Source of the DNA: Cyanobacteria bacterium UBA8803
GTDB taxonomy: Bacteria > Cyanobacteriota > Cyanobacteriia > Cyanobacteriales > Coleofasciculaceae
DNA length: 20,417 bases
Direction of reading: 5' to 3'
Assembly: GCA_003505715.1 (NCBI GenBank)
Contig: DNXU01000537.1
Span: 4,027 to 24,443, forward strand
Positions within the stretch are counted from its first letter, which is position 1. Every line of letters starts with the position of its first letter. Positions 1-18,467 of the stretch are shown in pieces. The notes under the pieces were generated by a model. The model worked only from the letters and a program-made list of their open reading frames with translations, ran no database searches and was not told the origin of the DNA. The position numbers were made by a program, and so were the translations under genes.

Positions 1-510
1 CATCTTCTAAAGCTTTAATTAAGCCGGGAATAGCAGATTCTGAGCCGATTTTGTCGAGAGCTTCTACCGCATTACTACGGACATAATAACTATCATCTTC
101 TAAAGCTTTAATTAAGCCGGGAGTCGCCACCTCTGAGCCGATTTGACCGAGAGCTTTCACCGCACTACCACGGACATAATAACTATCATCTTCTAAAGCT
201 TTAATTAAGTCGGGAATCGCCACCTCTGAGCTGATTTTGCCGAGAGCATCTACCGCATTACTACGGACATTATAATCATCATTTTCTAAATCTTTAATTA
301 AGCCGGGAATCGCCACCTCTGAGCCGATTTTGCCGAGAGCATCTGCCGCACTACTACGGACATCATAATCATCATCTTCTAAAGCTTTAATTAAGTCGGG
401 AATCGCCACCTCTGAGCCGATTTTGCCGAGAGCTTCTACCGCACTACTACGGACATAATAATCATCATCTTCTAAAGCTTTAATTAAGCCGGGAATCGCT
501 TTCTCAGATT
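1..510 (-). repeat. Tandem 93-bp units encoding 31-aa HEAT repeats
   Basis: Units begin at 1, 94, 187, 280, 373 and 466, so the period is exactly 93 bp (31 codons). Units differ by only a few bases, for example in the stretch CATCTTCTAAAGCTTTAATT, which recurs with few or no changes. Each encodes a helix pair with the pattern (A/V)xxALGKIGSEVAIPxLIKALEDD. The array continues past the left edge, so the full copy number is unknown. Near-identity at DNA level points to recent expansion or homogenisation. Confidence 0.92.
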
Positions 511-2428
511 TGGTTAGGTTCAAAAGCTGGATTTGGAGTAACTGAGGCACTTCTAACCCAGCTAATAAACCCACGGTTTGTGCCTGATGCTTCAGTTTTA
601 CCTCCCCTGCCAACCTCGCTCCCAACCTTAAATCCACCTCTAAAGCTAACTTCACCACTCGCACCACCTGCGCCTCATCCTCCACTAACTCGAGCATCAG
701 TGCCAGCGGTTCTGTCCATTTCAGATAATTCAGATACTCTCGTTTCAATTTCTCATCGCTGATACCCCCAGGATTTAACGAATTGCCCCCCCTAACCCCC
801 CCAACTTTGGGGGGGAAAACAGCAGAAGTTTTGTCTTGTTCCCCCCAGGATTGGGGGGTTAGGGGGGCAGCTCGACTCTGCAACACCTTCAGCAAATACT
901 CTGCCGTGTAATATTCTTGAATCAGTTGATGCCGAAATTCAATTTGGTCGCCTGCCCGCATTTGAATCAGGTGATGCTTGAGTAAATCTTTCAGCCATTT
1001 GCAAGCACAGCTACGTGGTTGCTCTAATCCCTCATCCCTTAGAAATGCTGTCAGCATCTCTTCTGCCTCTTGCTTAGGAATCGCAACTTGTAAGTCAGTC
1101 CGATTTTTTCCCTGAGTCATCGTAAACGCCAGCTGCTCCAACAGCAACTGACACCAATCCCGCGACTCCTCTGTCACCGGAACATCCTGCTTGAGTTTGC
1201 CATAATAACTCTGGCTGAACTGGCGAAACACCTTTCCCAGATTCGACGGCACCTTTCCCATCTTGCTGCTAAACAGGGAACACAGCATCCACAACAGCAG
1301 AGGTGTTTGCCCAAACTCCCGCAGCCGACTCCCCAACTGCCTCAACATTTCCTCCCCCTGCTGTGGCAGATAAGCCTGGACAAACTGCTGCATCTGCGCT
1401 TCACTCAGGGGTTGCATTTCCAACTTATTAACAATATCCAAGTCACCCCCCACCCCCAAATCCCGCGTTGTGAAAATCATCGGCGTTGTTTTCTGATAGT
1501 CTTGCCGAAATTTCTGCAAATCCCGTCGTGCCTCATCGTTTGGCAATTCATTGAGTCCATCCACCAGCAGCAGCAATTGTCCCTGCCGCAACCAAGTTTT
1601 GAGCGTTTCGGCATCTACGGTTAAATTGGGGTCATGCCGTTGCAAGAAGTCTTGAATTAAGTCGAGGATGGAGGTGCGGTAGTAACGGAGTTCCACGAGA
1701 ACGGGGATTTTCACGCCTCCAGTCCCCCCTGCTTCCTTACTCTTCTGTGCCTCCTCCAACAATAACCGCGCCAACGCCGTTGATTTCCCCGAACCTGGAC
1801 GCCCTACCAGCAATACATGCTGCGAGGCATACTTGCGCAACCCCTCCAGCACCATCAATCGCTCAACCTTTTCCTCCCCTTTACCTCTCTCCTCCCTCTC
1901 CCGTTCTACCGTCTGTACCATCAGATCAAAATCAAATAGCAGGGGTGACTGTTCCGCCTCAGCCTGCTTTTGTCCCACTACATCCGTAATGGTGTAAACC
2001 TTCCGCCATTGAGCGTAAGTAGTGCAGAGGGATTCTAGATAGCGTACAGGTAAATTTGTCTGTTCAAGTAAGAGAACATTCCCAGCGCTGTTCTTTTGTG
2101 CTAGATTCCACTTACCAATAACATGTTCAATAATTTCTCTATCTGCTGCGGCTAAATTGAGGTCAGTCTGGCTTAGGTATTCCAAAAATACAATTAATCC
2201 TAGCCTTTGCGAATGCTCAACTGTAATATAAACCTTTGAAAGCTTAGCGCAAAGGCTGAAAACGAACTGGAAAGTAGTTGCCTCTAAAGGCAGTAAGGCA
2301 GAGTATTCTCCTAACCCACAGTTACTCAGCACAGCACTACGGAGTTCAGCATCAGCAGTTTTGAGCAGTGTTCTATGGGTTAAAATTTTCTGGAGTTGAG
2401 CCTTTTCCTGTGAGTTAAGAAATTCCAT
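1..2428 (-). CDS. NACHT ATPase with C-terminal HEAT repeats (partial, runs off the left edge)
   Basis: The frame stays open from an ATG at 2428 to base 1, giving at least 809 residues; the C terminus lies outside the window. Residues 1-110 form an adaptor-like domain shared with the NACHT gene at 3743-6115. The NACHT module has Walker A GRPGSGKS (209-216) and Walker B LLLLVDGLNEL (285-295). A helical segment ends in a FRHQLIQEYYTAEYL motif (498-512), typical of the end of NACHT modules. From about residue 643 there are 31-residue HEAT repeats of PBS-lyase type, each encoded by an almost identical 93-bp unit. A C/G-rich inverted repeat is read through in frame at residues 519-556. Such proteins are thought to act as STAND switches, with the HEAT array as sensor or oligomerisation surface. 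No clear Shine-Dalgarno is visible. It is the last gene seen of the six-gene array. Family assignment is firm; a role in defence is inferred. Confidence 0.9.
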   Translation of the reverse strand, partial: MEFLNSQEKAQLQKILTHRTLLKTADAELRSAVLSNCGLGEYSALLPLEATTFQFVFSLCAKLSKVYITVEHSQRLGLIVFLEYLSQTDLNLAAADREIIEHVIGKWNLAQKNSAGNVLLLEQTNLPVRYLESLCTTYAQWRKVYTITDVVGQKQAEAEQSPLLFDFDLMVQTVEREREERGKGEEKVERLMVLEGLRKYASQHVLLVGRPGSGKSTALARLLLEEAQKSKEAGGTGGVKIPVLVELRYYRTSILDLIQDFLQRHDPNLTVDAETLKTWLRQGQLLLLVDGLNELPNDEARRDLQKFRQDYQKTTPMIFTTRDLGVGGDLDIVNKLEMQPLSEAQMQQFVQAYLPQQGEEMLRQLGSRLREFGQTPLLLWMLCSLFSSKMGKVPSNLGKVFRQFSQSYYGKLKQDVPVTEESRDWCQLLLEQLAFTMTQGKNRTDLQVAIPKQEAEEMLTAFLRDEGLEQPRSCACKWLKDLLKHHLIQMRAGDQIEFRHQLIQEYYTAEYLLKVLQSRAAPLTPQSWGEQDKTSAVFPPKVGGVRGGNSLNPGGISDEKLKREYLNYLKWTEPLALMLELVEDEAQVVRVVKLALEVDLRLGARLAGEVKLKHQAQTVGLLAGLEVPQLLQIQLLNLTKSEKAIPGLIKALEDDDYYVRSSAVEALGKIGSEVAIPDLIKALEDDDYDVRSSAADALGKIGSEVAIPGLIKDLENDDYNVRSNAVDALGKISSEVAIPDLIKALEDDSYYVRGSAVKALGQIGSEVATPGLIKALEDDSYYVRSNAVEALDKIGSESAIPGLIKALED
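761..874. repeat. C/G-rich inverted repeat inserted in frame in the NACHT gene
   Basis: Two arms face each other: TGCCCCCCCTAACCCCCCC (784-802, then AA) and TTGGGGGGTTAGGGGGGCA (851-869). They match as an inverted repeat apart from single C/G length differences, with further G and C tracts between them. The open frame continues through it and encodes a low-complexity Pro/Gly-rich stretch (residues about 519-556) between the NACHT end motif and the next helical segment. This looks like a cyanobacterial dispersed palindromic element that inserted without breaking the frame. Confidence 0.75.
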
Positions 2429-2556
2429 ATTCAGTTATTCAATTATTCAGATTCCCATACTGATTGACTCACCGAGGAGATATTATTTTGAGATTGTGCG
2501 ATCGCATTCCCCAACTCTTCTAGCCAATTCAGTTTCCCTTGCTGCATTCACTACCT

Positions 2557-3726
2557 TTAGGCAGTCTGTGGCAGCTCCAGGATGAGACGGTAAGCGTCCA
2601 AATATTTGAGAAGAAAAGAGTGAGCTGATCCCCACAGATAAAGGCGGAACATACGATACCGCGCCTCACCCCAACGATGTATGATTTCATCACGAGCGTC
2701 TTCGAGGTTCTCTGCCCAAGCTTTACAAGTTAAGAAATAACTGTGACGGTCATTGTAGATAGCCTGTAGCTCAAAGGGAGTTTTAGCTACACCTTTAAGA
2801 AAGTCGTGCAAACAGAAGCACGAATGATTCCTCCGGAAAATGTAACGGCTAATAAAGGAGGGAAGCTGATACTTCTGACGGCTAGCGCTGGCATCAAGGT
2901 AAACACGCCCACCTGGCTTTAAGAGACGCTGGCACTGTCTCAACACAGCAGGATAGTTCGGAAGATGTTCCATAACGCCGATGATGACAATTGCATCGTA
3001 GCATTCCCCTGACTCATGTTCTAGGAAGTGCTGGTTAATAGCTTCACAGGGCAGCTTTAGTTGCTCAATCAAAGCTGTTAGGAATTGCATAGATTCTTGG
3101 GAGATTGTCAGCGACGTTACCCGAATTCCTTGCCTTCCTGCATGTTCGGTAAAAGCTCCCCAACCAGCGCCTACATCTAGGACGCGATCGCCCGATTTCA
3201 GACCACAAGCTTCAATGGCAAAGTTAAGCTTGCGGCATTGAGCCGTCTCCAATGTCTCATTATCCCGCTCAAACACTGCCTGAGAATAACATCGGGTTTT
3301 ACCTAAGAATGTTAGGTAAAACTCATTACCCAAATCATCATAGTGTTGAGAGATTGCCTGTCGATCGCTTCGGATCTGCCCAAGAATTATGGGAACTACA
3401 TGTCGCCATAGTCTATACCAGAGGTAGCGGTCGGTCAACAGGTAGCGCATACTTAGAGCCTGCAACATATCACCAGTAATATCAAGACTCCCGTCAATGT
3501 AGGCTTCAGAGAGCTTACACTCGTCAAGTTGGTTCAATGCCGCAAGTCCTCTAATATCGTTAACAATCAACTTAAATAACGGTTCTCCCTTACCAAAACA
3601 ATAGAAATGGCTATTCCATAGCTCTATTGCAAAGGGAATTCTGGCTTGGTCAAAAAAACGCTTCTGGACAGAACTAGATAAACCGCTACTGCTTAGGATA
3701 TGTGAATTACTGATAGCTTTCAGCAT
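2557..3726 (-). CDS. Cyclopropane-fatty-acid-synthase-like SAM methyltransferase
   Basis: This 389-residue protein follows the CFA synthase layout. The N-terminal domain carries EAYIDGSLDI (75-84); the substrate-contact segment HYDDLGNEFY (128-137) follows; the Rossmann core has SAM motif I VLDVGAGWG (182-190), VMEHL (251-255) and LLKPGG (268-273). True CFA synthases methylate double bonds of membrane phospholipid acyl chains and bind bicarbonate in the active site. By eye alignment to E. coli Cfa, Glu253 and Tyr330 are kept. The usual Cys of YSCAY is Gln149 (YSQAV) and the usual His of the LLHTIG strand is Asp278. The substrate or chemistry may therefore differ. The gene starts 16 bp after the stop of the membrane NACHT gene and precedes the HEAT NACHT gene, so it probably belongs to the same transcript. 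Family confidence is high; exact reaction is uncertain. Confidence 0.85.
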   Translation of the reverse strand: MLKAISNSHILSSSGLSSSVQKRFFDQARIPFAIELWNSHFYCFGKGEPLFKLIVNDIRGLAALNQLDECKLSEAYIDGSLDITGDMLQALSMRYLLTDRYLWYRLWRHVVPIILGQIRSDRQAISQHYDDLGNEFYLTFLGKTRCYSQAVFERDNETLETAQCRKLNFAIEACGLKSGDRVLDVGAGWGAFTEHAGRQGIRVTSLTISQESMQFLTALIEQLKLPCEAINQHFLEHESGECYDAIVIIGVMEHLPNYPAVLRQCQRLLKPGGRVYLDASASRQKYQLPSFISRYIFRRNHSCFCLHDFLKGVAKTPFELQAIYNDRHSYFLTCKAWAENLEDARDEIIHRWGEARYRMFRLYLWGSAHSFLLKYLDAYRLILELPQTA

Positions 3727-3742
3727 TATTTTTTTATCCCAG

Positions 3743-6115
3743 TTACAGATTTATTGAAGAAATATTAAATGAAGCAAAATGCTCTAGTAGCAGTCGGTGG
3801 ATGAATATATAGCCTCCACCAACCTTTTGCAAGAAGATTCTTTTCGTTGCATAGTTGAGGAAACGGGCATAATTCCAAGGTATATAACCATTCCACCAGA
3901 GAATGATACGCATAATAAAGTGTTGAAGGCAAACTAACCCTGAGCCTCCGCTACCAACCAATCCCAGAAATATTCCCAAACTTAAGGTGACACTCATTAT
4001 TGCTGGAATCATTTGATTGGGCGGAAGATCCCTACTTCTTAACCACCAAATCGGTACAGATATGATTACAACAAGCGTAAGGAAAATGGCAGCATTAGTT
4101 GCTGATTGTAAAATACCTTGATTAGGAATTGTTCTTCTCTCTACCTCAGAACGTTTTTGAAACCCACCAATCAGAGCAAAAAATAGTACCCATATCAAAA
4201 AATCTGATAGTATATTTTTATATAAACCTTTAGTAATAAAAATGGAGATTATTGACACACATACCAACCCAATAAATAAGCCAACAACAGCATAGCTTCG
4301 AGCTTTCAACCAGGAAAATTTAGTTGTATATACTGGCTCTATTTTTTCAGAAATTAAGCGTTCAATTAGCCAGAATCCAGCTCCACATATAGTTGATTCA
4401 ATCAACAACCAAACCACCAATAAATTCCACGAGAGGTGCTTTTCAAACAACCAGGCAACGAGAACTCCACTGATTCCAAATACAAGTCCAGCTGCTAATC
4501 CAATAATTAACTTACAATTCAGCTTAGAGAGTAGCTCCGCAATTAATCCCGATATTAATCCAGATAGCATTGAAGTAATCACAATCACCCACCAAGGTGT
4601 CATTCCAGATGACTCAAAAATATCTTCATAAGCATATACCCTCCAAAAAAACAACCCCACACTTAACCCATACAACCAACCTACAATCAATTTAAATCCA
4701 ATACGATATACCCACGTCTGAGTTCTGGAAAGCAGCCAGCTAGGCTGCATACGCTCAATTAAAAAGACTGTTTTAGATTGCTGAACCATTCTTTGTGCTA
4801 GCCAAGTCAGCCAGCGCTTTGCTTTGTGTTCTGGATAATGATCTTGAACAACCCTACGGCTGAACATCCTGTCTATGTATGCATTAAATAGATGCTGGCG
4901 GCGTTCTTCCAAGTTCTGACTGGGCAAATCTTCAATGGACATCCCTCGGTAAGCAAGGGTAATGATATTCAGCATAAGAGGCGATTTTACCAATTCTTGC
5001 AGGTGGATATCGGTACGCAATGCTATGCTGACTGCTGCCAGTTCAGCACCAGCATCAGCCAGATAGAGTTGAACTTGCTCGCTAGTTAGTGGTTGTATGT
5101 ATATGGCTGCTTGAAAGTTCAGACGGTGTCGTAGAGATTCGTAGTCCTTGATGCGACTACACACTACCATCTCTGTATCCACTTGTTCCTGATGTAATTG
5201 ATTTAACGCCTGAACGCAGGCATCCCGGTAAGCGCTGTTCACCTCATCTAGACCATCAAGCAATAGCAGTAATTGCCCAGCTTTCATCCAACTTTTGCCA
5301 ACTTGCTTGGGAACCTGGTATTGACTGTAGAGTTCTGAAACTAACCAATCAGCAATGGTGTGCTTCCCACCTTGCCAAGAAGAGAGGTTTAACACCACTG
5401 GTATTGGTAGGTTGACATCTTGCTGGGCACGATCAACTAAGTCACGAGCAAGTTCAACCAGAGTTATGGTTTTTCCAGCTCCAGGTTCTCCTAAAATCAG
5501 CATAGTGCGACCTATGCCCAACTGATCGAATTGATCTATGACTTTGGTATCAGGTGGTAGGGGTTGCTGGTCTTGGTCGGGAGTTTCCCAATTAAATACT
5601 ACTGGTCTATTCACAGCGTTGAATCGCTCTTCGAGTCCCAATTCAATTAGTGCTTGATCATGTAAGGACTTCTCCAATACGCCGTTAACCCAGGAATTTC
5701 TAACCTTATTAAGCAGAATCTGGCGATTGCGATCCTCTTGGTAGGTTAATCGCGTTCCTATAAGTTGCTGCTTGCCCTGACTGGATGCCTGCCCTAGCTC
5801 CCACTTAGTAATAACGTATTGAATAAATTTCTTATCTTCTTCTGATAAATTAAAGTCAATCTGGCTCAGGTATTCCAAAAAGACAACTAATCCTAATTTT
5901 TCTGAATTATCAACCGTAACATATACCTGGGAAAGGGTAGCATAAATGCTGATAACGAACTTACCTAAAGGTTGATCTAACTGAACTAATCCACAATATT
6001 GATCTAGGCCACAAAACGCTAGAACATTACTACGCTCATCAGCAGTTTGAAGTTGTGAACTCTTAGTTAAAATTCGCAAAAGCTGAAATTTTTCTTGGGA
6101 GTTAAGAAAGTCCAT
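3743..6115 (-). CDS. NACHT ATPase with C-terminal multi-spanning membrane module
   Basis: A complete 790-residue protein. Residues 1-110 match the N-terminal domain of the NACHT gene at 1-2428 (both begin M-E/D-FLNSQEK and share GL(I/V)VFLEYLSQ), about half identical by eye. The NACHT module has Walker A GEPGAGKT (209-216), Walker B LLLLLDGLDEV (282-292) and a sensor-like VVCSR (317-321). About eight hydrophobic segments follow (near 475-495, 508-530, 536-557, 563-585, 607-628, 635-652, 675-692 and 703-725). The tail IPWNYARFLNYATKR...FIHRLLLEHF (745-780) is an end motif I recall from cyanobacterial NACHT proteins. It is probably an inner-membrane STAND NTPase whose membrane part could be effector or anchor. 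It starts 34 bp after the upstream stop. No strong Shine-Dalgarno precedes the ATG. Domain calls are firm; the defence role is inferred. Confidence 0.9.
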   Translation of the reverse strand: MDFLNSQEKFQLLRILTKSSQLQTADERSNVLAFCGLDQYCGLVQLDQPLGKFVISIYATLSQVYVTVDNSEKLGLVVFLEYLSQIDFNLSEEDKKFIQYVITKWELGQASSQGKQQLIGTRLTYQEDRNRQILLNKVRNSWVNGVLEKSLHDQALIELGLEERFNAVNRPVVFNWETPDQDQQPLPPDTKVIDQFDQLGIGRTMLILGEPGAGKTITLVELARDLVDRAQQDVNLPIPVVLNLSSWQGGKHTIADWLVSELYSQYQVPKQVGKSWMKAGQLLLLLDGLDEVNSAYRDACVQALNQLHQEQVDTEMVVCSRIKDYESLRHRLNFQAAIYIQPLTSEQVQLYLADAGAELAAVSIALRTDIHLQELVKSPLMLNIITLAYRGMSIEDLPSQNLEERRQHLFNAYIDRMFSRRVVQDHYPEHKAKRWLTWLAQRMVQQSKTVFLIERMQPSWLLSRTQTWVYRIGFKLIVGWLYGLSVGLFFWRVYAYEDIFESSGMTPWWVIVITSMLSGLISGLIAELLSKLNCKLIIGLAAGLVFGISGVLVAWLFEKHLSWNLLVVWLLIESTICGAGFWLIERLISEKIEPVYTTKFSWLKARSYAVVGLFIGLVCVSIISIFITKGLYKNILSDFLIWVLFFALIGGFQKRSEVERRTIPNQGILQSATNAAIFLTLVVIISVPIWWLRSRDLPPNQMIPAIMSVTLSLGIFLGLVGSGGSGLVCLQHFIMRIILWWNGYIPWNYARFLNYATKRIFLQKVGGGYIFIHRLLLEHFASFNISSINL

Positions 6116-6149
6116 AGTTAGCCATTAGGATTCCACAATTGCGTTTACC

Positions 6150-7241
6150 CTACTGTTTAAATAGTTTTTCTAACTCTGCCAATTCCCCCTCTGTCTCTGC
6201 ATCCACAGCTGGCAAAGGTCGCTGCATGATGGAATAGAGCGATCGCTTTTGCACTGTTACCCCTTGCAAACCAATCTCACGCAGATGTTCATGAATTTTC
6301 AGCACCATGTTTCGGCGGTCAGCCTTTATCAAATCCGGACTGCGAAAAATTGTTGCTTTGATAGCAGGCAAAAGAAAATCTTTTACCTTATCGTATTCAC
6401 CGTCAAACACAGCATCTTGAGCCTGGTAAACCAATTCCTTAATTTGGGTCAACGACTCCCAATCTTGAGCTGGACGCTTTTCTACACGGAATAGCATATA
6501 GCTATACCCCTCAAGAGGTTTACCATCACGCACAAACACCTTAGTTTTTCCCGGTGTTCCCACCTTCAAGCTGCCATTCACAACACACAGCGTATCTGGA
6601 TTAATCTGGTTTTCCTCAGCCAAGATAGCCAAGAAGTAACCTGGCTTGAGGTCATTGTCCCCCCCACCACCAGCAGCACAAAAAGTTTGTTGATACCCCA
6701 ATTCTAACTGCCCCTCTCCAGCACCGATTAAGTCTTCAATCCCTCGATACACAGGTTCTGCTAGCTTCACCACGGTTGAGAGTTCTGGCACTGGCAATAA
6801 CTCGGAAAACCGCCCCATCGTTTTGATAAATTTGCCGATGGGGTCACTATTCACCATACTGAACAACCCAGCTTGCAACTCCACCAAGCCATCATTAAAG
6901 GGAAATAGGGGTGTTAGTGGATAGTTACACTGGATGACTTTATTCAGATTCTCTTTCGACAGTTCTTGTAGATGTCCTGGCTCAGCCAGATAGGGAATCG
7001 TAACAGACTTACCGCCATGATTGAAGCGAATCGCCGCATGAACGACTGGATACCGTTCCCTAAACCAATCCACATCTCTGGCTAAGCGCATCTCCACCAA
7101 CCACAGACGACAGTAGGCTTCTCCCGCATTTATCGGTGTGGCATCGTAATCTACATTAGTCCGATATTCCGGTAGAAAAAGGGCTTGATATTTCGGGGAC
7201 TCTCGCCTGAACGTTTCTGAGAAATTCTGCCAAAAACTCAT
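6150..7241 (-). CDS. Unrecognised 363-aa protein, partner of the protease gene
   Basis: I do not recognise a named family. The protein is soluble, with no signal peptide and no membrane segment. Residues 35-90 contain a mixed alpha/beta stretch (EAYCRLWLVEMRLA, then FNHGGKSVTIPYLA). A second block holds YPLTPLFPFNDGLVELQAGLF (107-127 region). A loop rich in glycine, CAAGGGGDNDLKPGYF (188-203), leads into a small beta-rich domain. The C-terminal 110 residues look helical and charged. Translation starts at an ATG with a good AAGGAAG ribosome-binding site 7-9 bases upstream. It lies only 20 bp after the protease stop, so the two are almost certainly co-translated and may form a complex or a substrate-protease pair. 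That pairing is inference. High coding confidence, function unknown. Confidence 0.85.
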   Translation of the reverse strand: MSFWQNFSETFRRESPKYQALFLPEYRTNVDYDATPINAGEAYCRLWLVEMRLARDVDWFRERYPVVHAAIRFNHGGKSVTIPYLAEPGHLQELSKENLNKVIQCNYPLTPLFPFNDGLVELQAGLFSMVNSDPIGKFIKTMGRFSELLPVPELSTVVKLAEPVYRGIEDLIGAGEGQLELGYQQTFCAAGGGGDNDLKPGYFLAILAEENQINPDTLCVVNGSLKVGTPGKTKVFVRDGKPLEGYSYMLFRVEKRPAQDWESLTQIKELVYQAQDAVFDGEYDKVKDFLLPAIKATIFRSPDLIKADRRNMVLKIHEHLREIGLQGVTVQKRSLYSIMQRPLPAVDAETEGELAELEKLFKQ

Positions 7242-7261
7242 GAATCACTTCCTTGCCAATA

Positions 7262-8680
7262 TCAAGATAGTTGAGTTTGAATGTTTTTCCAGAAGGCACG
7301 AAGCGGAACACCAGATGTGGTTCCTGGCTCAAGCGATCGCCCAGCACGCCCTATACCCAGGTTTCCCCGATGAATAGCCACTAATTGCCAATCCCGATTA
7401 AAAATTGGCGCACCAGATGACCCCTCATCAGTACTGATGTTGTGGTCGATGTAATCGTCTCCCACTTGCACAATCTGACCCAAGCCAGAAATTACAACAT
7501 ATTGTCCTTGTGGATGGTGAATCAGGCGAATTTCCTGATTACTATCTAATATGGCATCAATTAGGTTAGCTGTCCGTTGCTTCGGCTCACCTTTGACCCT
7601 GACCAAAGCATAATCCAGTTGACTAGAGCGTGTCGCCGTATCGAGATCCAGTTCAAAGACATTTGAGTCTAAGGGGTAGCTCCCAGCTGTGTAGTTAAAA
7701 CGCACCCAGGCTACTGTAGCCTGACTTTTGCTAAAAATGTGGTCGCAGGTGAGCAGCAGATTCTTCCCAATCAGGACACCAGTACCAATACCAGTTCCTT
7801 GAGGCGACTCAATTCTACCAACTGCACTGCGAGCCGCTAAAGCCTTAAGATTTTCCTGTCCCCGCTCAACTAATCGGGTGAATAAAGCAACATCCCGATC
7901 TGCCAGTCCATAAATTGGAGCCAGCTCGCATAGGTACTTGAGTAGGCTCACCAGCGGGTGATCATCCAAGCGCTGATTAGAGACAGGGTACGTCCTAAAT
8001 GCTGCGACTAATGCTGGAGCAAATTTAATCGGTGTTGCACCCAGTTTCAGGTTGCTGAGCACAGCCATATCGATACCAGCACTCTCCAGAACCTCTTGGC
8101 GATCGCTAGCATCGTTAATCTTAATGGCAAATTGGTTTAGCGCTAAAGTTAAAAGAGGAACATCTCTGTCCTCCAAAAATAATTCAGGATTCATAACACT
8201 TTCATCTGTCCAGCTTGAATTTGAGTCTGTAAATTGAGATAAAACTTCAACGGCTTGATGAGGCTGTATCGAAATAGGAGCAGGAGCCTGAGCCGATGCT
8301 TGCGGGTTGAGGCGACGCTTCAAATCCTGAATAAACTCCTTCGATGAAGTTGCTTGAACCTTCTGTTTGTATAGAGATTTCTCAATTGGCTCAACAACGC
8401 TTACGTAGAGGTCACGGATGTATCTCCGCCGTGCAGCATATGTACCGTCCAATTCTGATGACCAGTAGTCATACCAGTCCCAGAGAGACCTGAATTCGTT
8501 TGGATTTGAGATAGATAGCCCCGCTTCCTGTAGCAGCTCAAATCTTAGTGCGACTTCTCGGTAAAGTTCGGTGTACTCCTCCTCCTCATGCTCAATTCGA
8601 GTTCCAGTAGCAACGTCGATCAGGATTAATTGCAGCTTTTTAATCTTTGTTAGAAACTCTTCAAGTTGTTCAGGTTCCAT
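7262..8680 (-). CDS. Trypsin-like serine protease with N-terminal adaptor-type helical domains
   Basis: A 472-residue protein in three parts. Residues 1-105 are an acidic helical domain with the motif SLWDWYDYWSSEL (65-77) followed by an Arg-rich RRRYIRDLY (84-92). Residues 172-250 form a second helical domain (LTLALNQFAIKI...HPLVSLLKYL) resembling the effector-associated adaptor domains described for STAND conflict systems. Residues 290-470 are an S1-family chymotrypsin-fold protease: GIGTGVLIG (297-305), catalytic His314 in TCDHIF, Asp356 in QLDYALV, and Ser422 in DEGSSGAP. The triad is complete. No signal peptide is seen, so it should act in the cytoplasm. The expected role is cleavage of a host or partner protein after recruitment by an activated NTPase; this follows from known architectures, not from anything measured here. 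The start is the first in-frame ATG, with a weak ribosome-binding site. Confidence 0.88.
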   Translation of the reverse strand: MEPEQLEEFLTKIKKLQLILIDVATGTRIEHEEEEYTELYREVALRFELLQEAGLSISNPNEFRSLWDWYDYWSSELDGTYAARRRYIRDLYVSVVEPIEKSLYKQKVQATSSKEFIQDLKRRLNPQASAQAPAPISIQPHQAVEVLSQFTDSNSSWTDESVMNPELFLEDRDVPLLTLALNQFAIKINDASDRQEVLESAGIDMAVLSNLKLGATPIKFAPALVAAFRTYPVSNQRLDDHPLVSLLKYLCELAPIYGLADRDVALFTRLVERGQENLKALAARSAVGRIESPQGTGIGTGVLIGKNLLLTCDHIFSKSQATVAWVRFNYTAGSYPLDSNVFELDLDTATRSSQLDYALVRVKGEPKQRTANLIDAILDSNQEIRLIHHPQGQYVVISGLGQIVQVGDDYIDHNISTDEGSSGAPIFNRDWQLVAIHRGNLGIGRAGRSLEPGTTSGVPLRAFWKNIQTQLS

Positions 8681-8738
8681 AAACTACATCTAAATTTTCC
8701 GCAGACTCTCCCTCGTACCTCTACACCGCAACCTCTGC

Positions 8739-11700
8739 CTAATTCTGAGGGCGAAGATGCTCCAGTCGCTCAACAAGTTGCTCTATCTGGCTGTTCCTGT
8801 CGCGAAACCACTCTCTAGACCAAATTCTGTAAATGCGCCAGCCAAGTTTCTCCAACACCAATTGCCGAAGGCGATCACGATCGCGGACAGTTGAATATCT
8901 GTGATAAGTTACCCCATCACACTCGATGCCCAATAGAAACTCATCCCGATGGTCGTTTTTCACTGCTAAGTCAATTCGGTAATCTGAGCAACCTACTCGC
9001 CTCTCCACTCGGTAGTTACGCTTGATCAAAGCGAGGTAGATGTCGTCTTCTAAAGAAGAATTTAATCGAGTCAAATTATCAGATTGATTCCCCTCCAATT
9101 TTTTACCATCACTTGCAGCGTAAGCAAGGTAGTCTTTTAGCAGAGCCACGCCTCTACTGTTAGTCCGACTGAGGTCTAAATTCTCTGCCTGAATTGAAGC
9201 AACTAACACGAGCTTGTACTTAGCACGGGTTATTGCCACATTCAGCCGCCGTTCTCCTCCCTGTCGGCTCAGGGGACCGAAATTATGGATGAACTCACCT
9301 TGGCTATCAAATCCATATCCAAAGCTAAGAATAATCACGTCTCGCTCATCACCCTGAACCCGTTCTAGGGGTTTAAGGAAGAAATTAGGTGAGTTGTCCT
9401 GACAAAATTCTTCTAGGTTTGGATTAGTAGCACTCAGTTGATCAAGCTGCTCTTCAATGGCATCAGATTGAGGTTTACTGAATGCAATAATACCTAAAGA
9501 CTGCTGGGGGTTTTGCTGAACATGCTTCAGCGTCAGCCGCGCCACTTCCTCTGCTTCACGAATGTTGTCTCGCCGCCCTCCGCGATCGTAGATTCCTCCC
9601 TCAACGTACCGGAAATGGACGCCTCGATTAGCGTCTTTCACAGGGTTGGGGAAAGAGATGAGCTGTGACTCGTAGACTTTCTGGTTGGAGAAGGCAATGA
9701 GGCTCTCGTCTTGACTTCGGTAGTGCCACATCAGGATATGGTTTTCCATGAAAGTCCAGCACTCGTCAAGTACGCTCTCGTAGATATCCTCATCCTCATC
9801 ATCTTCTTCATCAGAGCTAGTGCCTACAAAAAATGAAGTGGGCGGAAGTTGCTTGTTGTCCCCAACAACAATTACCTGCTTGGCTCGCATAATGGAGGGG
9901 ATTGCCTCTTCGGTACGGATTTGGGATGCTTCATCAAAGATAACGACATCGAAGTGAACCACTTGTGGATCGACGTACTGGCTTACTGCAAGTGGACTCA
10001 TTAGCCAGCAGGGCTTGAGAGTAGTGACAAGTTCGGGAGCATTTGTGATGAACTCACGGATTTCCTTGTGCCTGTTTTGCTTTCCACTCTGTTGCTGAAG
10101 CAATTGCATTTGTTGCTTCGCTGTTGGTTGTCTAGACCACTCTCGCCAGCAATCAGCATGGAGCTGCCGAAGGCGGTCTCTTGCTACTTCATACTGCCGA
10201 GAATCAAGCTCAGAAAATTCCCGCACTACCTGCTCGTGGAGATGTGAGTGGAAGTTCCGCAGCTTAGGATTATTGCTGTGTACGTATTTTAGCCAGTTTT
10301 CGTAAACACCTTTCTCTAGAATGGGATACCAAGATTCTGGTGAAATCTCAGATTCCCGCAGCTTTGATAAGAATGCCCCAGCTCCTAAAGCTTCTATTTG
10401 CTCGATCAAGTTCTGATAGGTTAGCCAATCCTCGAACAAGTCAAGTTCGCTTTCAGCAGTGTTGAGAAAACCTCCCACCTCTTCTAAAGAATTGGTTCTC
10501 AGGGAATCAATAAATTCTTGGGGAAAGTAATTCAGCAAGAAGTCGAAACCTGCTTCAATCTGGTTCTGGTTAGTCTCCAGTTCGTCCTGTAGTCTTTCCA
10601 GTTCCCGACGGCAATCAAGTGAGGAAATAGCTGCTGCTACTTTCTCGGTATTAAGATCGTGTTTTCGCAGCTCTATCAACCAGTCAAGCGCCCTCCGGAT
10701 GCTTTCCAAGTCCGGTTGCTCTGTATTGAAAAATGGTCTAAAAGCAACGCGAGCTGGGTGCGCGGGATCTCTGAGTCTGTTACGAAGATCCTGAAGACAC
10801 ACTGCTTGCTTAAGATCCGATATCAATTCCTCATCGGAAACTCGACCTTTTACTTTCCGACATTTGAGTGTACTTATACGAACTTGCCAATAAGTACGCC
10901 GTAAGAAGCAAAAGAATCCCTTGGACTTTTGATATTGTTCTAGGAGTGCTGGTAAGTTTAAGTCGAGGATTGCATTGCTGTACTTAGCTTTTAGAGGGTT
11001 AGTCCGAATAGCCTCAACGTCCCATTCAAGGTCGCAGAACAACTGATGCAGGGTGCTGACATCTGTTCCTCTTTGCCATCCTTCTGGAACTGGGGGAGCG
11101 GCAACCACATGGGCTACGGCTGAATACAGAGCTTGCAGGTCTGCCAAAGGAGTTTCTCCTCCCAATAGCTCACCCAACCGGACTTTAGCCCTCTCGGCTA
11201 TTTGAATTCCTCGACGCAGGTTTTCAATTCCTCCTGAAAATTCTGAACGAACTTCAAATGGGAAGTCTTTGAGCTGGCTCCTTGTCCATACAGTTGTTGC
11301 CTTTTCCCGGAAAAATTGCAAAAATCCGCTGAGGTTACGCAGTAATTCCTCTGCATCCAATAACCGTAAATCAGACCACTCTTGAACATTAGAAAGCGTA
11401 AATTCGAGTATCGGAATCCTAGCTTGTTCGAGTCTGAGGAGTTCGCCGTAGAGTTCAAAAGCAGACTTATTCAGGGGTTGCTGCTTCTGATGTAAACGTA
11501 CCGGGTGATCCTTTAGGGTTTGACGACAGCGACGAAGCTTATGGAATAACAAGTTTTGCTCTTGTAACACATGGCGTTGTAAAAGCTGACTGGCAGTTTT
11601 ATTCAGATGTTCGTAAAAGTCTTTTTTATTAGTCGTACCCCTATGATGAAGATTTAAGCAGGCATCCTCAAGACCACAGTCTTTAAGCCTGTTAAAGACA

Positions 11701-12680
11701 ACTTCTAAAGCAGTTTCTTTTTCTGAAACCAGCAAGACGCGCTTCTGTGCGCCCATCAGCTCAGCTATCATATTGACGATAGTTTGGCTTTTCCCCGTGC
11801 CAGGTGGTCCCTGCACTACGAAGTTAAGTCCTGCTTTTGCTGCCTCAATGACTTCCTGCTGGCTGGAATCAGCTTCAAGTATCTGGAAGACTGCTTCAGG
11901 ATCAACTCGCTCATCTAGTTCTCTAGCATCGATTTTCTGAGGAATATTTGACTTGTCTGCTGTCGAGTTACCCGCCAGCGCTAGGAGAATCGGATGTTTG
12001 GCGACTATTTCCTCATTCTGTTCAAGCCGCTCAATGTCTCGAATCATTGCTGCCTTTGTCCTCTGAAACAAGCTAATGTAGGCAGTGTTCTCCACGTTCC
12101 AGTTAGGACGCTCAACAACAGCTTGACGAATCCTATTCAGACGTTCGTCATAGCCCAAATTTAGCTCCATTTCACTTTCAGATAAGGTAATTCCAAAGTC
12201 AGCGCTTAGTTTTTGAACCAACACCGGGTTCAGGGAGATCTCTTCCTCGGTTGAATAGAGCGTGTACTCTTGTTTCCTAGAAGTTTTACGTAATTCGACT
12301 GGTATGAGAAGGATAGGAGAACTGATGAGTTCCTTGGACTTTTCTGCAACATTCCACGTCAAAGTACCAATAGCTACAAAAAGGCTGTTGACGCCCTTCT
12401 CCTTCAGAAGGGCATTTGCCTCTTTGCGGAGCTTATTGAGAAACTTAGTACGTTCAGTCCCCATCTGCCTGGTTTCCAACTCATCGACAGGAAGTGGGCG
12501 AGACTTTTCCCCTGTGAGAGCTTCAAACAAAATTGATATTGATTCTGGATTAGAAATCTCAACAGTAGGAGGCTTGTCTTTTTTGAAGTACAGCAGACGG
12601 TTGCGCTTACTTAAATCAGCTAGTTTGTCTTTCCAGGTTTTGATTCTCTGCTGAATTTCTGGATTTACTGCGTTATTCAT
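8739..12680 (-). CDS. DUF4011-type SF1 helicase fused to a C-terminal Vsr-like endonuclease
   Basis: A very large protein (about 1313 residues; numbering here counts from a possible GTG at 12686). The N-terminal 250 residues, with KDKLADLSKRNRLLYF (19-34), fit DUF4011. The helicase has a Q-motif-like SSQQE (274-278), Walker A GPPGTGKS (293-300), DEAS (918-921), motif III GDNKQLPP (942-949), WHYRS (987-991), motif V VQGDERDVI (1110-1118) and motif VI RRLNVAITRAK (1146-1156). About 600 residues of helical insert separate Walker A from the DEAS box. The C terminus is a Vsr/PD-(D/E)XK nuclease with RIDLAV (Asp1239), IECDG (Glu1255, Asp1257), VRDRDR and GWRIYRIWS. Such fusions occur in bacterial defence islands and should unwind and cut nucleic acid. 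The ATG at 12680 is preferred because AGGGTG lies 5 bases upstream of it. It is the first gene of the minus-strand array. Confidence 0.93.
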   Translation of the reverse strand: MNNAVNPEIQQRIKTWKDKLADLSKRNRLLYFKKDKPPTVEISNPESISILFEALTGEKSRPLPVDELETRQMGTERTKFLNKLRKEANALLKEKGVNSLFVAIGTLTWNVAEKSKELISSPILLIPVELRKTSRKQEYTLYSTEEEISLNPVLVQKLSADFGITLSESEMELNLGYDERLNRIRQAVVERPNWNVENTAYISLFQRTKAAMIRDIERLEQNEEIVAKHPILLALAGNSTADKSNIPQKIDARELDERVDPEAVFQILEADSSQQEVIEAAKAGLNFVVQGPPGTGKSQTIVNMIAELMGAQKRVLLVSEKETALEVVFNRLKDCGLEDACLNLHHRGTTNKKDFYEHLNKTASQLLQRHVLQEQNLLFHKLRRCRQTLKDHPVRLHQKQQPLNKSAFELYGELLRLEQARIPILEFTLSNVQEWSDLRLLDAEELLRNLSGFLQFFREKATTVWTRSQLKDFPFEVRSEFSGGIENLRRGIQIAERAKVRLGELLGGETPLADLQALYSAVAHVVAAPPVPEGWQRGTDVSTLHQLFCDLEWDVEAIRTNPLKAKYSNAILDLNLPALLEQYQKSKGFFCFLRRTYWQVRISTLKCRKVKGRVSDEELISDLKQAVCLQDLRNRLRDPAHPARVAFRPFFNTEQPDLESIRRALDWLIELRKHDLNTEKVAAAISSLDCRRELERLQDELETNQNQIEAGFDFLLNYFPQEFIDSLRTNSLEEVGGFLNTAESELDLFEDWLTYQNLIEQIEALGAGAFLSKLRESEISPESWYPILEKGVYENWLKYVHSNNPKLRNFHSHLHEQVVREFSELDSRQYEVARDRLRQLHADCWREWSRQPTAKQQMQLLQQQSGKQNRHKEIREFITNAPELVTTLKPCWLMSPLAVSQYVDPQVVHFDVVIFDEASQIRTEEAIPSIMRAKQVIVVGDNKQLPPTSFFVGTSSDEEDDEDEDIYESVLDECWTFMENHILMWHYRSQDESLIAFSNQKVYESQLISFPNPVKDANRGVHFRYVEGGIYDRGGRRDNIREAEEVARLTLKHVQQNPQQSLGIIAFSKPQSDAIEEQLDQLSATNPNLEEFCQDNSPNFFLKPLERVQGDERDVIILSFGYGFDSQGEFIHNFGPLSRQGGERRLNVAITRAKYKLVLVASIQAENLDLSRTNSRGVALLKDYLAYAASDGKKLEGNQSDNLTRLNSSLEDDIYLALIKRNYRVERRVGCSDYRIDLAVKNDHRDEFLLGIECDGVTYHRYSTVRDRDRLRQLVLEKLGWRIYRIWSREWFRDRNSQIEQLVERLEHLRPQN

Positions 12681-12686
12681 TAACAC

Positions 12687-13264: not shown

Positions 13265-13323
13265 TTATTCTGTATTGAAGAACGCCATCAGTGTTAAAAT
13301 TTATTGTCTCAGGAAGCAAAACC

Positions 13324-13923
13324 ATGCCATACAGCAGTTTCACCTTAGCTAAAGCGAAAAAAGATTTTGGTCTAACAACTGCTGAAGGAGGGCGGTTTTT
13401 GCCGCCAATTGACCCCATAGCTCCCAGTTCTCGGCTACAAGATGCGTTGGCAGATTTGCCTTGGGCGATCGCTGTTGGCTCAGAAAAGGCTAAGTCCGAG
13501 GGCATCATTTACCCAATCCTACAAGAGGTAAGACGTATTTTAAAAAATCAGGTGAGTCTCTTCTCTGGTAGAGATTTTACAGTGGATGTCAACAAAGGAC
13601 TGAATGGCTATGTTGATTACCTGATTAGCCGTTCTCAAGAACAACTAGAAATCGAAGCACCAGTCGTGATGGTGGCGGAAGCGAAACGAGATAACCTGAA
13701 TGAAGGCTTGGGACAGTGCATTGCAGAAATGGTCGCTGCTCAAATTTTCAATCAAGCCAATCAGGTTAATATTTCCACAATTTACGGGTCAGTCAGTAAC
13801 GGTACTCAATGGCGCTTCTTGAAATTGGCAGGGTCAACGGTGACTATAGATTTGATGGATTATGCTCTACCTCCAGTTGACCAAATTTTGGGCTTTCTAG
13901 TCTGGATAGTTCGAGAGGGTTAG
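13324..13923 (+). CDS. PD-(D/E)XK nuclease-like small protein
   Basis: A 199-residue protein starting at the ATG at 13324, chosen because AGGAAG lies 7 bases upstream; an in-frame GTG at 13291 lacks such a site. The core has FTVDVNKGLNGYVDYLISR (85-103; Asp98), VVMVAEAKRDNL (114-125; Glu119 and Lys121) and LGQCIAEMVAA (129-139; Gln131). The spacing Asp-(about 20)-Glu-x-Lys followed by a helix with Gln is the PD-(D/E)XK fold pattern. I recall similar proteins as common and uncharacterised in filamentous cyanobacteria. It points away from the helicase operon. Whether it is an active nuclease, and what it cuts, is unknown; a link to the neighbouring array rests on proximity only. Confidence 0.8.
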   Translation: MPYSSFTLAKAKKDFGLTTAEGGRFLPPIDPIAPSSRLQDALADLPWAIAVGSEKAKSEGIIYPILQEVRRILKNQVSLFSGRDFTVDVNKGLNGYVDYLISRSQEQLEIEAPVVMVAEAKRDNLNEGLGQCIAEMVAAQIFNQANQVNISTIYGSVSNGTQWRFLKLAGSTVTIDLMDYALPPVDQILGFLVWIVREG

Positions 13924-14343: not shown

Positions 14344-14444
14344 CTCAGATCAAATAGATATTGGACTCGTTACCAACGACCCAAGCTAAAAATTACTAAA
14401 CCCGCCCCTTGAGCGTGCCCCATGTCAGCTAAGAAATTCTCAAA

Positions 14445-14526
14445 TGCGGACGAAAGGACTTGAACCTTCACTCCGTGAGGAACTAGAACCTAAATCTAGC
14501 GCGTCTGCCAATTCCGCCACGTCCGC
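14445..14526 (-). tRNA. trnL: tRNA-Leu (UAG anticodon)
   Basis: The minus strand folds as a class II tRNA of 82 nt. The acceptor stem is GCGGACG paired with CGTCCGC, with discriminator base A. The D arm contains GGCGGAATTGGCAGACGC. The anticodon stem CTAGA/TCTAG encloses the loop TTTAGGT, so the anticodon is UAG, reading the leucine codon CUA. A long variable arm (TTCCTCACGGAGTG) and T arm with TTCAAGT follow. CCA is not encoded. The long variable arm, the anticodon and the A discriminator together make leucine secure. Confidence 0.95.
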
Positions 14527-14621
14527 AAGTATCGTGATCGCTATCATAGCAAAAACTCGACCGTTTGAGTATGTGGGGGGAGACAAAGAAATTTATCTCC
14601 CCTTCCCACCAACAGCACCAA

Positions 14622-17391: not shown

Positions 17392-18090
17392 CTATGCTAA
17401 ATCAAACAACAGTATCTCTGCATCTTCTGTTGCTGTTATGGCAATATCTGTTTCCTCGCTGATGGCTGTGCCATCTCCTGGATCGAGGGGCAATCCGTTG
17501 AGGGTAATGGTGCCTTGAGCAACCTGTACCCAGGCATGGCGTTGAGGCTTTAGGTTATGAGAGATGCGATCGCCCTTTTTCAAAACTGCCCCGTACAAAT
17601 CTACATCCTGCTGCACTCTCAGCGCTCCTTCCCTACCATCAGCTGCGGCAATTAAGCGCAGTTGACCTGGATTCTTGGCTAGTCCGAAGTGATGCTGTTC
17701 GTAGCTAGGCGGAGTTCCTTTCGTTTGCGGTAACAGCCAAATTTGCAAGAAGTGAGCGGGTTCGGTTTGGGAAGGATTGAACTCGCTGTGCAGAATGCCC
17801 GTACCAGCACTCATCCGCTGCACGTCACCGGGGTAAATTACTGAACCGTTACCCATGCTGTCTTTGTGTTCTAGCGCCCCCGCCAATACATAGGTAATGA
17901 TTTCCATGTCACGATGTCCGTGGGTGCCAAAACCAGCACCGGGACTGACACGATCCTCGTTAATCACCCGCAGGGCGCGAAATCCCATATAACTAGGATC
18001 GTAATAATTGGCAAAGGAAAAGGTGTGGTAACTATCTAGCCAACCGTGATTGGCATGTCCACGATCTTGGGCTTTGCGAATTTCCATCAT
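17392..18090 (-). CDS. Pirin family protein
   Basis: A 232-residue bicupin protein of usual pirin length. The N-terminal cupin holds all four metal ligands: His57 and His59 in GTHGHRDMEI (55-64), and His101 and Glu103 in GILHSEFN (98-105). SYHTFSFANYYDP (20-32) and QIWLLP (116-121 region) are family hallmarks. Bacterial pirins bind iron or nickel, and some have quercetin 2,3-dioxygenase activity or respond to redox stress; the substrate here cannot be told. AAGGA precedes the start, followed by two adjacent ATG codons. The CDGSH gene ends 72 bp upstream on the same strand, so the two may share a transcript facing away from the HxlR regulator. Confidence 0.93.
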   Translation of the reverse strand: MMEIRKAQDRGHANHGWLDSYHTFSFANYYDPSYMGFRALRVINEDRVSPGAGFGTHGHRDMEIITYVLAGALEHKDSMGNGSVIYPGDVQRMSAGTGILHSEFNPSQTEPAHFLQIWLLPQTKGTPPSYEQHHFGLAKNPGQLRLIAAADGREGALRVQQDVDLYGAVLKKGDRISHNLKPQRHAWVQVAQGTITLNGLPLDPGDGTAISEETDIAITATEDAEILLFDLA

Positions 18091-18162
18091 ATTTATTCCT
18101 TATTAGTCATCATTAGGCGTAGAGAATCCTAAACTAGAAACTCCATTGTTCCGTTACCTTGG

Positions 18163-18399: not shown

Positions 18400-18444
18400 C
18401 TTGTTCTCCTCAAAGTCTTGCCACTACAAAACAGAAAATTAGTA

Positions 18445-18467
18445 GAAACGTTCTGCCGGAACGTCTC
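18445..18467. promoter_or_regulatory. Inverted repeat in the CDGSH/HxlR divergent region
   Basis: GAAACGTTC-TGCCG-GAACGTCTC: the arms match at 8 of 9 positions, with a perfect inner ACGTTC/GAACGT. It lies 46 bp upstream of the CDGSH start, a good place for a regulator that controls the divergent pair. The bound factor is unknown; the adjacent HxlR protein is the obvious candidate. Confidence 0.4.

What the first reader, a model, noticed from the sequence alone, without database searches (positions are those of the whole stretch)
1..12680. Six-gene minus-strand array combining helicase-nuclease, protease, two NACHT switches and a lipid-methyltransferase-like enzyme
Six large genes run in one direction with gaps of 58, 20, 34, 16 and 128 bp. 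They encode a DUF4011 helicase fused to a Vsr-like nuclease, a trypsin-like protease with adaptor domains, an unknown partner, a membrane NACHT, a CFA-like methyltransferase and a HEAT-repeat NACHT. NACHT proteins and helicase-nuclease fusions are established anti-phage components, and protease-adaptor-STAND combinations are described in conflict systems. I do not know this six-part combination as a named system. It could couple recognition by NACHT proteins to protein cleavage, nucleic-acid damage and membrane change.
Basis: partly seen in the sequence, partly recalled or inferred. Interest (0 to 1): 0.8.

Follow-up and report, generated by a model that had tools for sequence, protein, structure and literature searches.

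The report
Protease cartridge between helicase and NACHTs
A cyanobacterial gene row looks like a composite immune locus in which a protease and an uncharacterised partner protein, a pair that recurs next to several other immune sensors, sit between a helicase and two NACHT-type receptors; whether the protease switches its partner on is untested.

Summary
The six-gene row is real, with exactly the stated gaps, but it is not one conserved six-part system. Of 31 distinct loci with the "unknown partner" (UNK; duplicates removed), only the window shows the methyltransferase or the HEAT-NACHT in the stretch read. The constant unit is a gene pair, an EAD8-trypsin protease (PROT) plus UNK, adjacent in 24 of 31 loci. 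The pair recurs beside a DUF4011 helicase-nuclease (HEL), EAD8-STAND, EAD8/MoxR/vWA, SIR2-nSTAND1 and HSP90-like partners. Distant UNK relatives lie beside papain-like and caspase peptidases. A helical domain (X) heads the protease where HEL is adjacent (14 of 14) and in none of 9 HEL-less loci. X co-diverges with HEL (r 0.89) and the trypsin domain with UNK (r 0.68), HEL with UNK hardly at all (r 0.21). In the Nostocales clade of protease-linked HELs the nuclease has lost its motif glutamate; the window keeps it. Best reading: a protease-UNK cartridge with two inputs, HEL through X and NACHTs through EAD8, with UNK as likely substrate or pro-effector. EAD8-STAND/trypsin coupling and protease-activated partners are in print; I did not find UNK or HEL-X coupling named.

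The parts
8739..12686 (-). HEL: DUF4011 + split SF1 helicase + MTES_1575 (Vsr-like) nuclease, best PADLOC match PDC-S37
   Evidence: PDC-S37 1305 bits. Walker A GPPGTGKS at residue 293, IFDEAS at 916
8763..9050 (-). nuclease domain of HEL (residues 1213-1308), motif IECDG intact here
   Evidence: PF18741, 110 bits
7262..8680 (-). PROT: X domain - EAD8 - trypsin-like protease
   Evidence: model mean pLDDT 74, pTM 0.56
8318..8668 (-). X domain (PROT residues 5-121), helical in the model, found in PROT where HEL is adjacent
7811..8185 (-). EAD8 of PROT (residues 166-290)
   Evidence: PF19961 53 bits over residues 176-284; wider span
7280..7816 (-). trypsin-like domain (residues 289-467), triad H314-D356-S422, H437
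   Evidence: triad in 21 of 21 proteins aligned; nearest PDB sequences: V8/glutamyl endopeptidases
6150..7241 (-). UNK: protease-linked protein without a match in the family libraries tried
   Evidence: (no family)
6468..7130 (-). C2-like beta-sandwich region of UNK (residues 38-258) with helical insert 133-173
3743..6115 (-). TM-NACHT: EAD8 - NACHT - multiple hydrophobic segments
5807..6106 (-). EAD8 of TM-NACHT (residues 4-103)
   Evidence: PF19961 E 0.0012, under the cut-off; hhalign prob 95.5
2557..3726 (-). CMAS/CFA-like methyltransferase; probably a locus-specific passenger or add-on
2..2428 (-). HEAT-NACHT (cut by the window edge): EAD8-like - NACHT - HEAT repeats
2117..2419 (-). EAD8-like N-terminus of HEAT-NACHT (residues 4-104)
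   Evidence: 53% identical to that of TM-NACHT

Best explanation
The locus is a composite immune (conflict) locus built around a two-gene cartridge, PROT + UNK. Two kinds of input can reach the protease. HEL (helicase-nuclease) acts through the X domain fused to the protease (inferred from co-occurrence and co-divergence). The two NACHT proteins act through their N-terminal EAD8 domains, which are of the same family as the EAD8 of the protease (domains shown; contact inferred). On sensing an invader, HEL or a NACHT oligomer would gather and activate the protease, a V8-like enzyme with an intact triad, predicted to cut after acidic residues. Its dedicated target would be UNK, a soluble protein with a C2-like sandwich and helical additions, acting as a latent effector freed or reshaped by cleavage, plausibly at the membrane. 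This is the logic of the published protease/pro-nuclease pairs with an unrelated partner fold. In the window HEL keeps its nuclease motif, so DNA cleavage may be a second output. CMAS is probably a passenger. Shown: the parts, the recurrent pair, the co-inherited blocks, the nuclease motif loss elsewhere. Inferred: activation order, cleavage of UNK, membrane action, phage defence.
For: PROT and UNK are adjacent in 24 of 31 loci, gap exactly 20 bp in 15 of 20 same-strand pairs; UNK and PROT distance matrices agree, r 0.73, 0 of 5000 permutations, n 20. In the order sample 12 of 14 UNK genomes have a strong PROT match, all 12 within 7 kb of UNK on the same contig; the other two hold only UNK fragments. 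Partners swap: HEL; EAD8-STAND; EAD8/MoxR/vWA; SIR2-nSTAND1; HSP90-TPR. HEL-linked UNK proteins are not one clade (AU p 0.00027). X is in the protease in 14 of 14 HEL-adjacent loci and 0 of 9 HEL-less ones. HEL~X r 0.89 (0 of 5000), TRYP~UNK r 0.68 (0 of 5000), HEL~UNK r 0.21, X~UNK r 0.19 (12 loci). X follows the far end of HEL (0.79) better than the nearer trypsin domain (0.30) (9 loci). L054: X stays behind HEL but is fused to a metallophosphoesterase. Distant UNK relatives sit beside a papain-like and a caspase peptidase. The motif glutamate of the HEL nuclease is absent in all 12 Nostocales protease-linked loci where it could be read, and in 24 of 24 listed database proteins nearest to them, against 80 of 80 kept among those nearest to HELs without X or PROT; this parallels the loss of HamA nuclease motifs in protease-HamA fusions (PMC12799240). 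Nearest solved proteases are V8/glutamyl endopeptidases, E 3.8e-11; the histidine of their IHWGG motif aligns with H437, kept in 21 of 21.
Confidence: 0.5

Rival explanations
1. UNK is not a substrate but a partner of the protease: a C2-like membrane-docking subunit, chaperone or inhibitor that keeps it off. The protease itself (cutting host or phage proteins) and the HEL nuclease are the effectors.
For: Tight pairing and shared ancestry fit a complex as well as an enzyme-substrate pair; C2-like folds bind lipids (function recalled); relatives occur beside proteases of three folds. A pairing of that kind, trypsin with Trypco1/2, is in print without a known role in the passages read (PMC7159879).
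Against: Partner swapping among trypsin, papain and caspase folds is easier for a substrate than for a fold-specific cofactor (argument, not a test); L052 and L048 keep UNK without a nearby trypsin.
Confidence: 0.3
2. Plain defence island: HEL is an independent single-gene system, PROT-UNK-NACHT another, merely neighbours.
For: HEL-type proteins occur with neither X nor PROT beside them in genomes G257, G091, G241 and G285; the best PADLOC family, PDC-S37, is by its name a single-gene candidate (meaning of the name recalled).
Against: X in the protease where HEL is adjacent, HEL~X co-divergence, and X left behind HEL in L054.
Confidence: 0.1
3. One reading: all six genes act as one machine, with the methyltransferase changing membrane lipids.
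For: One direction, short gaps; CMAS lies between the two EAD8-NACHT genes.
Against: CMAS and HEAT-NACHT are not seen in the stretches of the other 30 loci; CMAS matches at E <= 1e-80 in 3 of 388 genomes, the other two without PROT or UNK nearby.
Confidence: 0.05
4. A cell-death or stress pathway of filamentous cyanobacteria that is not mainly directed at phages.
For: The published EAD systems are linked to multicellular habit and predicted cell death (PMC7159879, PMC8195603: passages and one section read); 20 of the 23 loci are from cyanobacteria by title.
Against: The helicase resembles families named for anti-phage members, though under their NCBIfam cut-offs; decay and partner swapping fit an arms race.
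Confidence: 0.05

Closest known systems
EAD8-STAND plus EAD8-trypsin conflict systems (PMC8195603; DGR 6 locus of PMC10907252)
   Same: A trypsin-like protease and STAND NTPases share an EAD8 adaptor; the EAD8-iSTAND2/MoxR/vWA form described in PMC8195603 resembles my loci L020/L034 and L021.
   Different: The passages and section that I read do not mention an UNK-like partner, the X domain or a DUF4011 helicase-nuclease input.
Protease-activated pro-nuclease pairs in Hachiman, AVAST, Lamassu and DRT, and caspase-nuclease canu (PMC12799240; parts 1 and 2 of 6 read)
   Same: A trypsin-like protease with a partner gene is acquired again and again by unrelated immune systems, one of them helicase-based; the partner also occurs with caspases; protease fusions lost the original nuclease motif.
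   Different: The partner there is an MBL-fold nuclease, typically upstream; UNK is downstream, has no Pfam match and a C2-like model. The protease here is fused to adaptors (X, EAD8), not to a defence enzyme. Cleavage was shown there, not here.
Hhe / ProA / PDC-S37 DUF4011 helicase-Vsr nucleases
   Same: DUF4011, SF1 helicase and MTES_1575 nuclease; PDC-S37 is the best PADLOC match.
   Different: Shorter (1315 aa) and under the NCBIfam cut-offs for ProA (1115 of 1500 bits) and Hhe (752 of 2000); linked to a protease by X.
Trypsin-co-occurring Trypco1/Trypco2 and constant component EACC1 (PMC7159879)
   Same: A constant non-peptidase gene beside a peptidase gene.
   Different: UNK matches no Pfam family at E up to 0.05; EACC1 is described as a single TM helix with short extensions, UNK has no hydrophobic segment at the threshold used.
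Bacterial CARD-NLR systems with trypsin-like peptidases (PMC13236601; passages read)
   Same: Adaptor, NLR-like ATPase and trypsin-like peptidase controlling lysis.
   Different: EAD8 in place of CARD; no gasdermin, phospholipase or LypC-like gene recognised among the six genes.

Membership tests
EAD8-coupled STAND/trypsin conflict system | trypsin-like protease carrying EAD8, active site intact | tested here: met
   PF19961 53 bits, Trypsin_2 64 bits; H-D-S in 21 of 21 proteins aligned
EAD8-coupled STAND/trypsin conflict system | EAD8 at the N-terminus of a neighbouring STAND NTPase | tested here: met
   TM-NACHT PF19961 E 0.0012 but 19.9 bits against cut-off 27, HEAT-NACHT not listed; family profiles align, hhalign prob 95.5, E 1.6e-8; HEAT-NACHT 53% like TM-NACHT
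EAD8-coupled STAND/trypsin conflict system | homotypic EAD contact recruits the protease | not testable with these tools
   needs binding assays
protease-activated pro-effector pair (HamM/Avs1a/CanC type) | protease and partner pair recurring in unrelated immune systems | tested here: met
protease-activated pro-effector pair (HamM/Avs1a/CanC type) | partner is an MBL-fold nuclease | tested here: not met
   no family match; C2-like model
protease-activated pro-effector pair (HamM/Avs1a/CanC type) | partner cleaved and activated by the protease | not testable with these tools
   needs a biochemical assay
Hhe (NCBIfam NF042953) or ProA (NF058533) | score above the family's curated cut-off | tested here: not met
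   752 of 2000 bits and 1115 of 1500 bits
PADLOC PDC-S37 | near full-length match to the model | tested here: met
   residues 67-1312 to model 90-1342 of 1550, 1305 bits
C2 domain | C2 beta-sandwich fold | tested here: inconclusive
Trypco1/Trypco2 | sequence membership | tested here: inconclusive
   no Pfam family for UNK at E up to 0.05; I did not check that both models are in this Pfam copy
bacterial gasdermin | gasdermin fold | tested here: inconclusive
   not named among the 50 rows shown by each; the full lists were not seen
cyclopropane fatty acid synthase (CFA/CMAS) | CMAS domain | tested here: met
   PF02353 170 bits; equivalog cut-offs of NCBIfam not reached

The most novel reading that the evidence does not exclude
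PROT-UNK is a plug-in immune cartridge of a new kind: a V8-like protease and a latent C2-like, membrane-acting effector that it cleaves. Evolution has docked it to a DNA-scanning helicase through a dedicated X domain and, separately, to NLR-type receptors through EAD8. The window is a two-input version in which a nucleic-acid sensor and two protein sensors share one death effector, caught before the helicase's own nuclease was lost.
Probability: 0.27. Interest if true: 0.85.

Novelty: new variant of a known kind. Interest (0 to 1): 0.6.

Why it matters
If true, it adds a second fold to the newly described class of protease-activated pro-effectors, shows how one cartridge is wired to helicase sensors and to NLR-type sensors by different docking domains, and gives a test bed in laboratory cyanobacteria for how bacterial 'inflammasome-like' proteases choose their targets. 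The block structure inside one protease gene (X with the helicase, trypsin with UNK) makes the docking claim directly testable.

Tried and rejected
One six-gene system: rejected, see rival 3. UNK as an MBL pro-nuclease: no family match and another fold. UNK as Trypco/EACC: no Pfam match, inconclusive for Trypco. UNK on phages: no match in the phage collection. CMAS as a conserved NACHT companion: not seen beside the two close homologues, except a NACHT-like frame about 7 kb off in L082; four weaker homologues (L065-L068) were not looked at. Mere linkage as the cause of HEL~X co-divergence: made less likely, not excluded, (X~HEL first fifth 0.79, X~trypsin 0.30), where only 9 loci entered (12); leave-one-out values of HEL~X run from 0.81 to 0.90, but X~trypsin rises to 0.62 without L049, and HEL~trypsin is 0.34-0.61 by fifths of HEL. 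HEL loci left out: L039 (split HEL), L040 (no trypsin domain found), L053, L028, L029 (remnants). Rows left out of the UNK tree: L047 (broken UNK), L027 (partial UNK), L030, L028, L029, L053 (remnants), and L048, L050, L051, L052 (long branches); L036, whose upstream part is cut by the contig end, was held with the HEL rows in the AU test. A quick tree with the four long rows kept gave the same two places for HEL, with lower support. Viral structure library: one strong match for UNK (Hokovirus HKV1 protein), unexplained. Promoter and terminator scans: no more sites than in shuffled sequence. Paper searches for DUF4011 with trypsin, for trypsin-like + helicase + NACHT + cyanobacteria + anti-phage, and for protease + C2 domain + bacterial immune + phage + effector gave nothing on this system; paper supplements and figures were not read.
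Full report
OBSERVATION. Pfam gives DUF4011 + helicase + MTES_1575 nuclease (HEL); EAD8 + Trypsin_2 (PROT); nothing for the 363-aa protein (UNK); NACHT with a weak EAD8 (TM-NACHT); CMAS; NACHT + HEAT (HEAT-NACHT). PADLOC's best match for HEL is PDC-S37; NCBIfam places it near ProA and Hhe but under their cut-offs. The HEAT-NACHT runs beyond the window and contains an assembly gap. Motifs are intact: Walker A and B-like motifs in HEL and both NACHTs, and the protease triad H314-D356-S422 in 21 of 21 proteins aligned.

EAD8 LINKS. A search of the window's own genome with Pfam EAD8 finds one match, in PROT; a search with the TM-NACHT N-terminus finds only TM-NACHT and HEAT-NACHT (54%). The two NACHT domains are clear relatives (53%), and both are remote from that of PROT (20-27%), but family profiles align (hhalign probability 95.5, E 1.6e-8). 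So three EAD8-family domains were found in the genome, which is 90.7% complete, and all lie in this row. In a search with whole TM-NACHT over 388 genomes of the order (224 with a match; the row list was cut by the tool), no listed row except the window's own reaches residues 1-56, and most begin near residue 120: the NACHT-membrane part is common, while its EAD8 head was not seen elsewhere. The same N-terminus searched in 14 genomes that hold UNK, PROT or HEL relatives matches in 5, each time at the UNK locus (G284, G228, G362, G168, G233), and in none of G087, G265, G317 and G382, whose UNK goes with HEL.

WHAT IS CONSERVED. UNK occurs in 14 of 388 genomes of the order and in 23 loci of the species-genome collection. 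Six of these are the same places, leaving 31 distinct loci, the window included. Reading the neighbourhoods: PROT is the adjacent same-strand gene in 24 of 31 (L036 cut at a contig edge, L040 lacking its trypsin domain, L030 a fused remnant); in 2 it is near but not adjacent (L043 on the other strand, L051 in pieces); in 5 it is absent from the stretch (L028, L029, L053 are remnants; L048 and L052 are non-cyanobacterial). The PROT-UNK gap is exactly 20 bp in 15 of 20 same-strand pairs measured. HEL is adjacent to PROT in 14 loci, in several of them cut, split or frameshifted (L031, L035, L037, L039, L044). CMAS is seen only in the window; a NACHT with HEAT repeats only in the window (L044 has another NACHT protein about 7 kb away, L025/L046 a HEAT protein without NACHT); only the window has HEL together with EAD8-NACHTs. 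Other partners: EAD8-NB-ARC (L033), EAD8-caspase-like-STAND-WD40 (L041; caspase and STAND parts by eye, the Pfam list being filled by WD40), EAD8 protein + MoxR + vWA (L020/L034 by Pfam, L021 by eye, L052 in part; the EAD8 protein of L020 matches no Pfam family, and iSTAND2 is my reading from PMC8195603), SIR2 + nSTAND1 (L024/L043), HSP90-like + TPR (L025/L046), EAD8-nSTAND1 (L030). Distant UNK relatives on plasmids lie beside a papain-family peptidase (Sporomusa, 30%) and a caspase (Pseudanabaena, 22%, in a MoxR locus); a third (Prosthecochloris, 22%) has no recognised peptidase beside it.

TWO BLOCKS IN ONE GENE. In the 14 loci with HEL beside PROT, PROT carries one or two copies of a helical domain X; in 9 HEL-less loci (L021, L030, L032, L033, L034, L041, L043, L046, L050) it does not (L047 cannot be judged because the contig ends, L036 and L051 are cut or in pieces). 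X is also found without HEL in L055-L060, in L055 fused to a Hypoth_Ymh domain. Over 12 HEL loci the pairwise distances of HEL and X agree (r 0.89, 0 of 5000 permutations), as do those of the trypsin domain and UNK (r 0.68, 0 of 5000) and of EAD8 and the trypsin domain (r 0.50, 1 of 5000), while HEL and UNK (0.21), X and UNK (0.19) and HEL and EAD8 (0.02) do not; HEL and trypsin reach 0.36 (154 of 5000) and X and trypsin 0.30 (187 of 5000). In the 10 Nostocales loci alone the pattern is sharper: HEL~X 0.91, HEL~trypsin -0.07, X~trypsin -0.03, TRYP~UNK 0.48 (9 of 5000). For example L037 and L049 share 92% in UNK but 40-47% in X and 41-55% in HEL, whereas L037 and L023 share 80-81% in X, 85-89% in HEL, 90% in UNK and only 42% in EAD8. 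X follows even the far end of HEL (0.79) better than the nearer trypsin domain (0.30), though HEL~trypsin is 0.34-0.61 in the same 9-locus matrix. In L054 the X domain stays behind a 77%-identical HEL but is fused to a metallophosphoesterase. I read this as two blocks, HEL-X and EAD8-trypsin-UNK, that meet inside the protease gene, X being the HEL-side dock. Gene order alone could contribute, and the loci are few.

REPEATED ACQUISITION. In the UNK tree of 21 rows the HEL-linked rows fall in two places, the window with Microcoleus vaginatus inside a starred group with EAD8/MoxR and EAD8-STAND loci, and a Nostocales group; holding them together is rejected (p-AU 0.00027; L036, with unknown upstream, was held with them). 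The quick PROT tree also needs two changes. The HEL tree, by contrast, puts all 11 protease-linked HELs tried on one side of a branch, so HEL-X may be one old unit that met different PROT-UNK pairs.

NUCLEASE LOSS. The nuclease motif IECDG of HEL is intact in the window, in L031 and in the 6 HELs read from loci without X or PROT (two nearly identical, one split). In all 12 Nostocales protease-linked loci where it could be read the glutamate is V, M or I; L054 has D there and A for the earlier motif aspartate. Among the 120 listed database relatives, 24 of 24 nearest to the Nostocales group lack the glutamate, 80 of 80 nearest to HELs without X or PROT keep it, and 15 of 16 nearest to the window keep it, the motif not being found in the other one (7992 proteins matched, 120 were listed and read). 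That this residue is catalytic is recalled from the PD-(D/E)XK superfamily, not tested. The loss may be a single event. It resembles the published loss of HamA nuclease motifs where a protease was fused to HamA (PMC12799240; parts 1 and 2 of 6 read).

MECHANISM. I propose that HEL (by X) and the NACHTs (by EAD8) gather and switch on PROT, which processes UNK, the latent effector. The order of events, the cleavage and the membrane site are inference, by analogy with HamB/HamA-protease/HamM (PMC12799240). A cofactor or anchor role for UNK is the main rival.

KNOWN AND NEW. EAD8-STAND with EAD8-trypsin is in print (PMC8195603: passages and section 6; PMC10907252: passages; PMC7159879: passages). 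Protease-partner pairs are in print (PMC12799240). In those passages, and in the listings of the searches, I found no mention of UNK, of X, or of a DUF4011 helicase coupled to a protease; most texts were seen in passages only, and figures and supplements were not read, so this is no proof of absence.

Noticed in passing
L054:2838-4463: X domain followed by a remnant like the HEAT-NACHT N-terminus and a metallophosphoesterase, right behind a HEL with altered nuclease motifs; looks like a fusion after a deletion.
   Followed up: partly
L022, L023, L027, L028, L035, L037-L039, L044, L049, L053: HEL-PROT-UNK or its remains sit beside a roughly 241-codon frame downstream and often a roughly 417-codon frame upstream; read by eye in L022 these look like a PAPS reductase and an SbcD-like phosphoesterase, so the module may occupy a fixed chromosomal site with repeated decay.
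   Followed up: no
L061, L062, L063: A second EAD8-trypsin type without UNK or X in the stretch.
   Followed up: no
L055:7534-8343, L057:5606-6337, L058:6080-6772: X domain with other C-terminal parts (Hypoth_Ymh in L055), no HEL beside it: X may be a wider adaptor.
   Followed up: partly
L025:4474-10284: HSP90-like ATPase, TPR protein and an EAD8-trypsin with a different N-terminal part in front of UNK.
   Followed up: no
UNK model against BFVD: Whole-length structural match to an uncharacterised protein of Hokovirus HKV1 (E 8.3e-7).
   Followed up: no
window 13291-13923, 14444-14527, 17392-18956, 19150-20387: Beyond the row: a 210-aa ORF without a Pfam match, a tRNA-Leu, a pirin and HxlR regulator pair in opposite directions, a ParA-like gene.
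   Followed up: no
L002 about 3820-4029: Assembly gap of N inside the HEAT repeats of the HEAT-NACHT; the window begins at its edge.
   Followed up: yes
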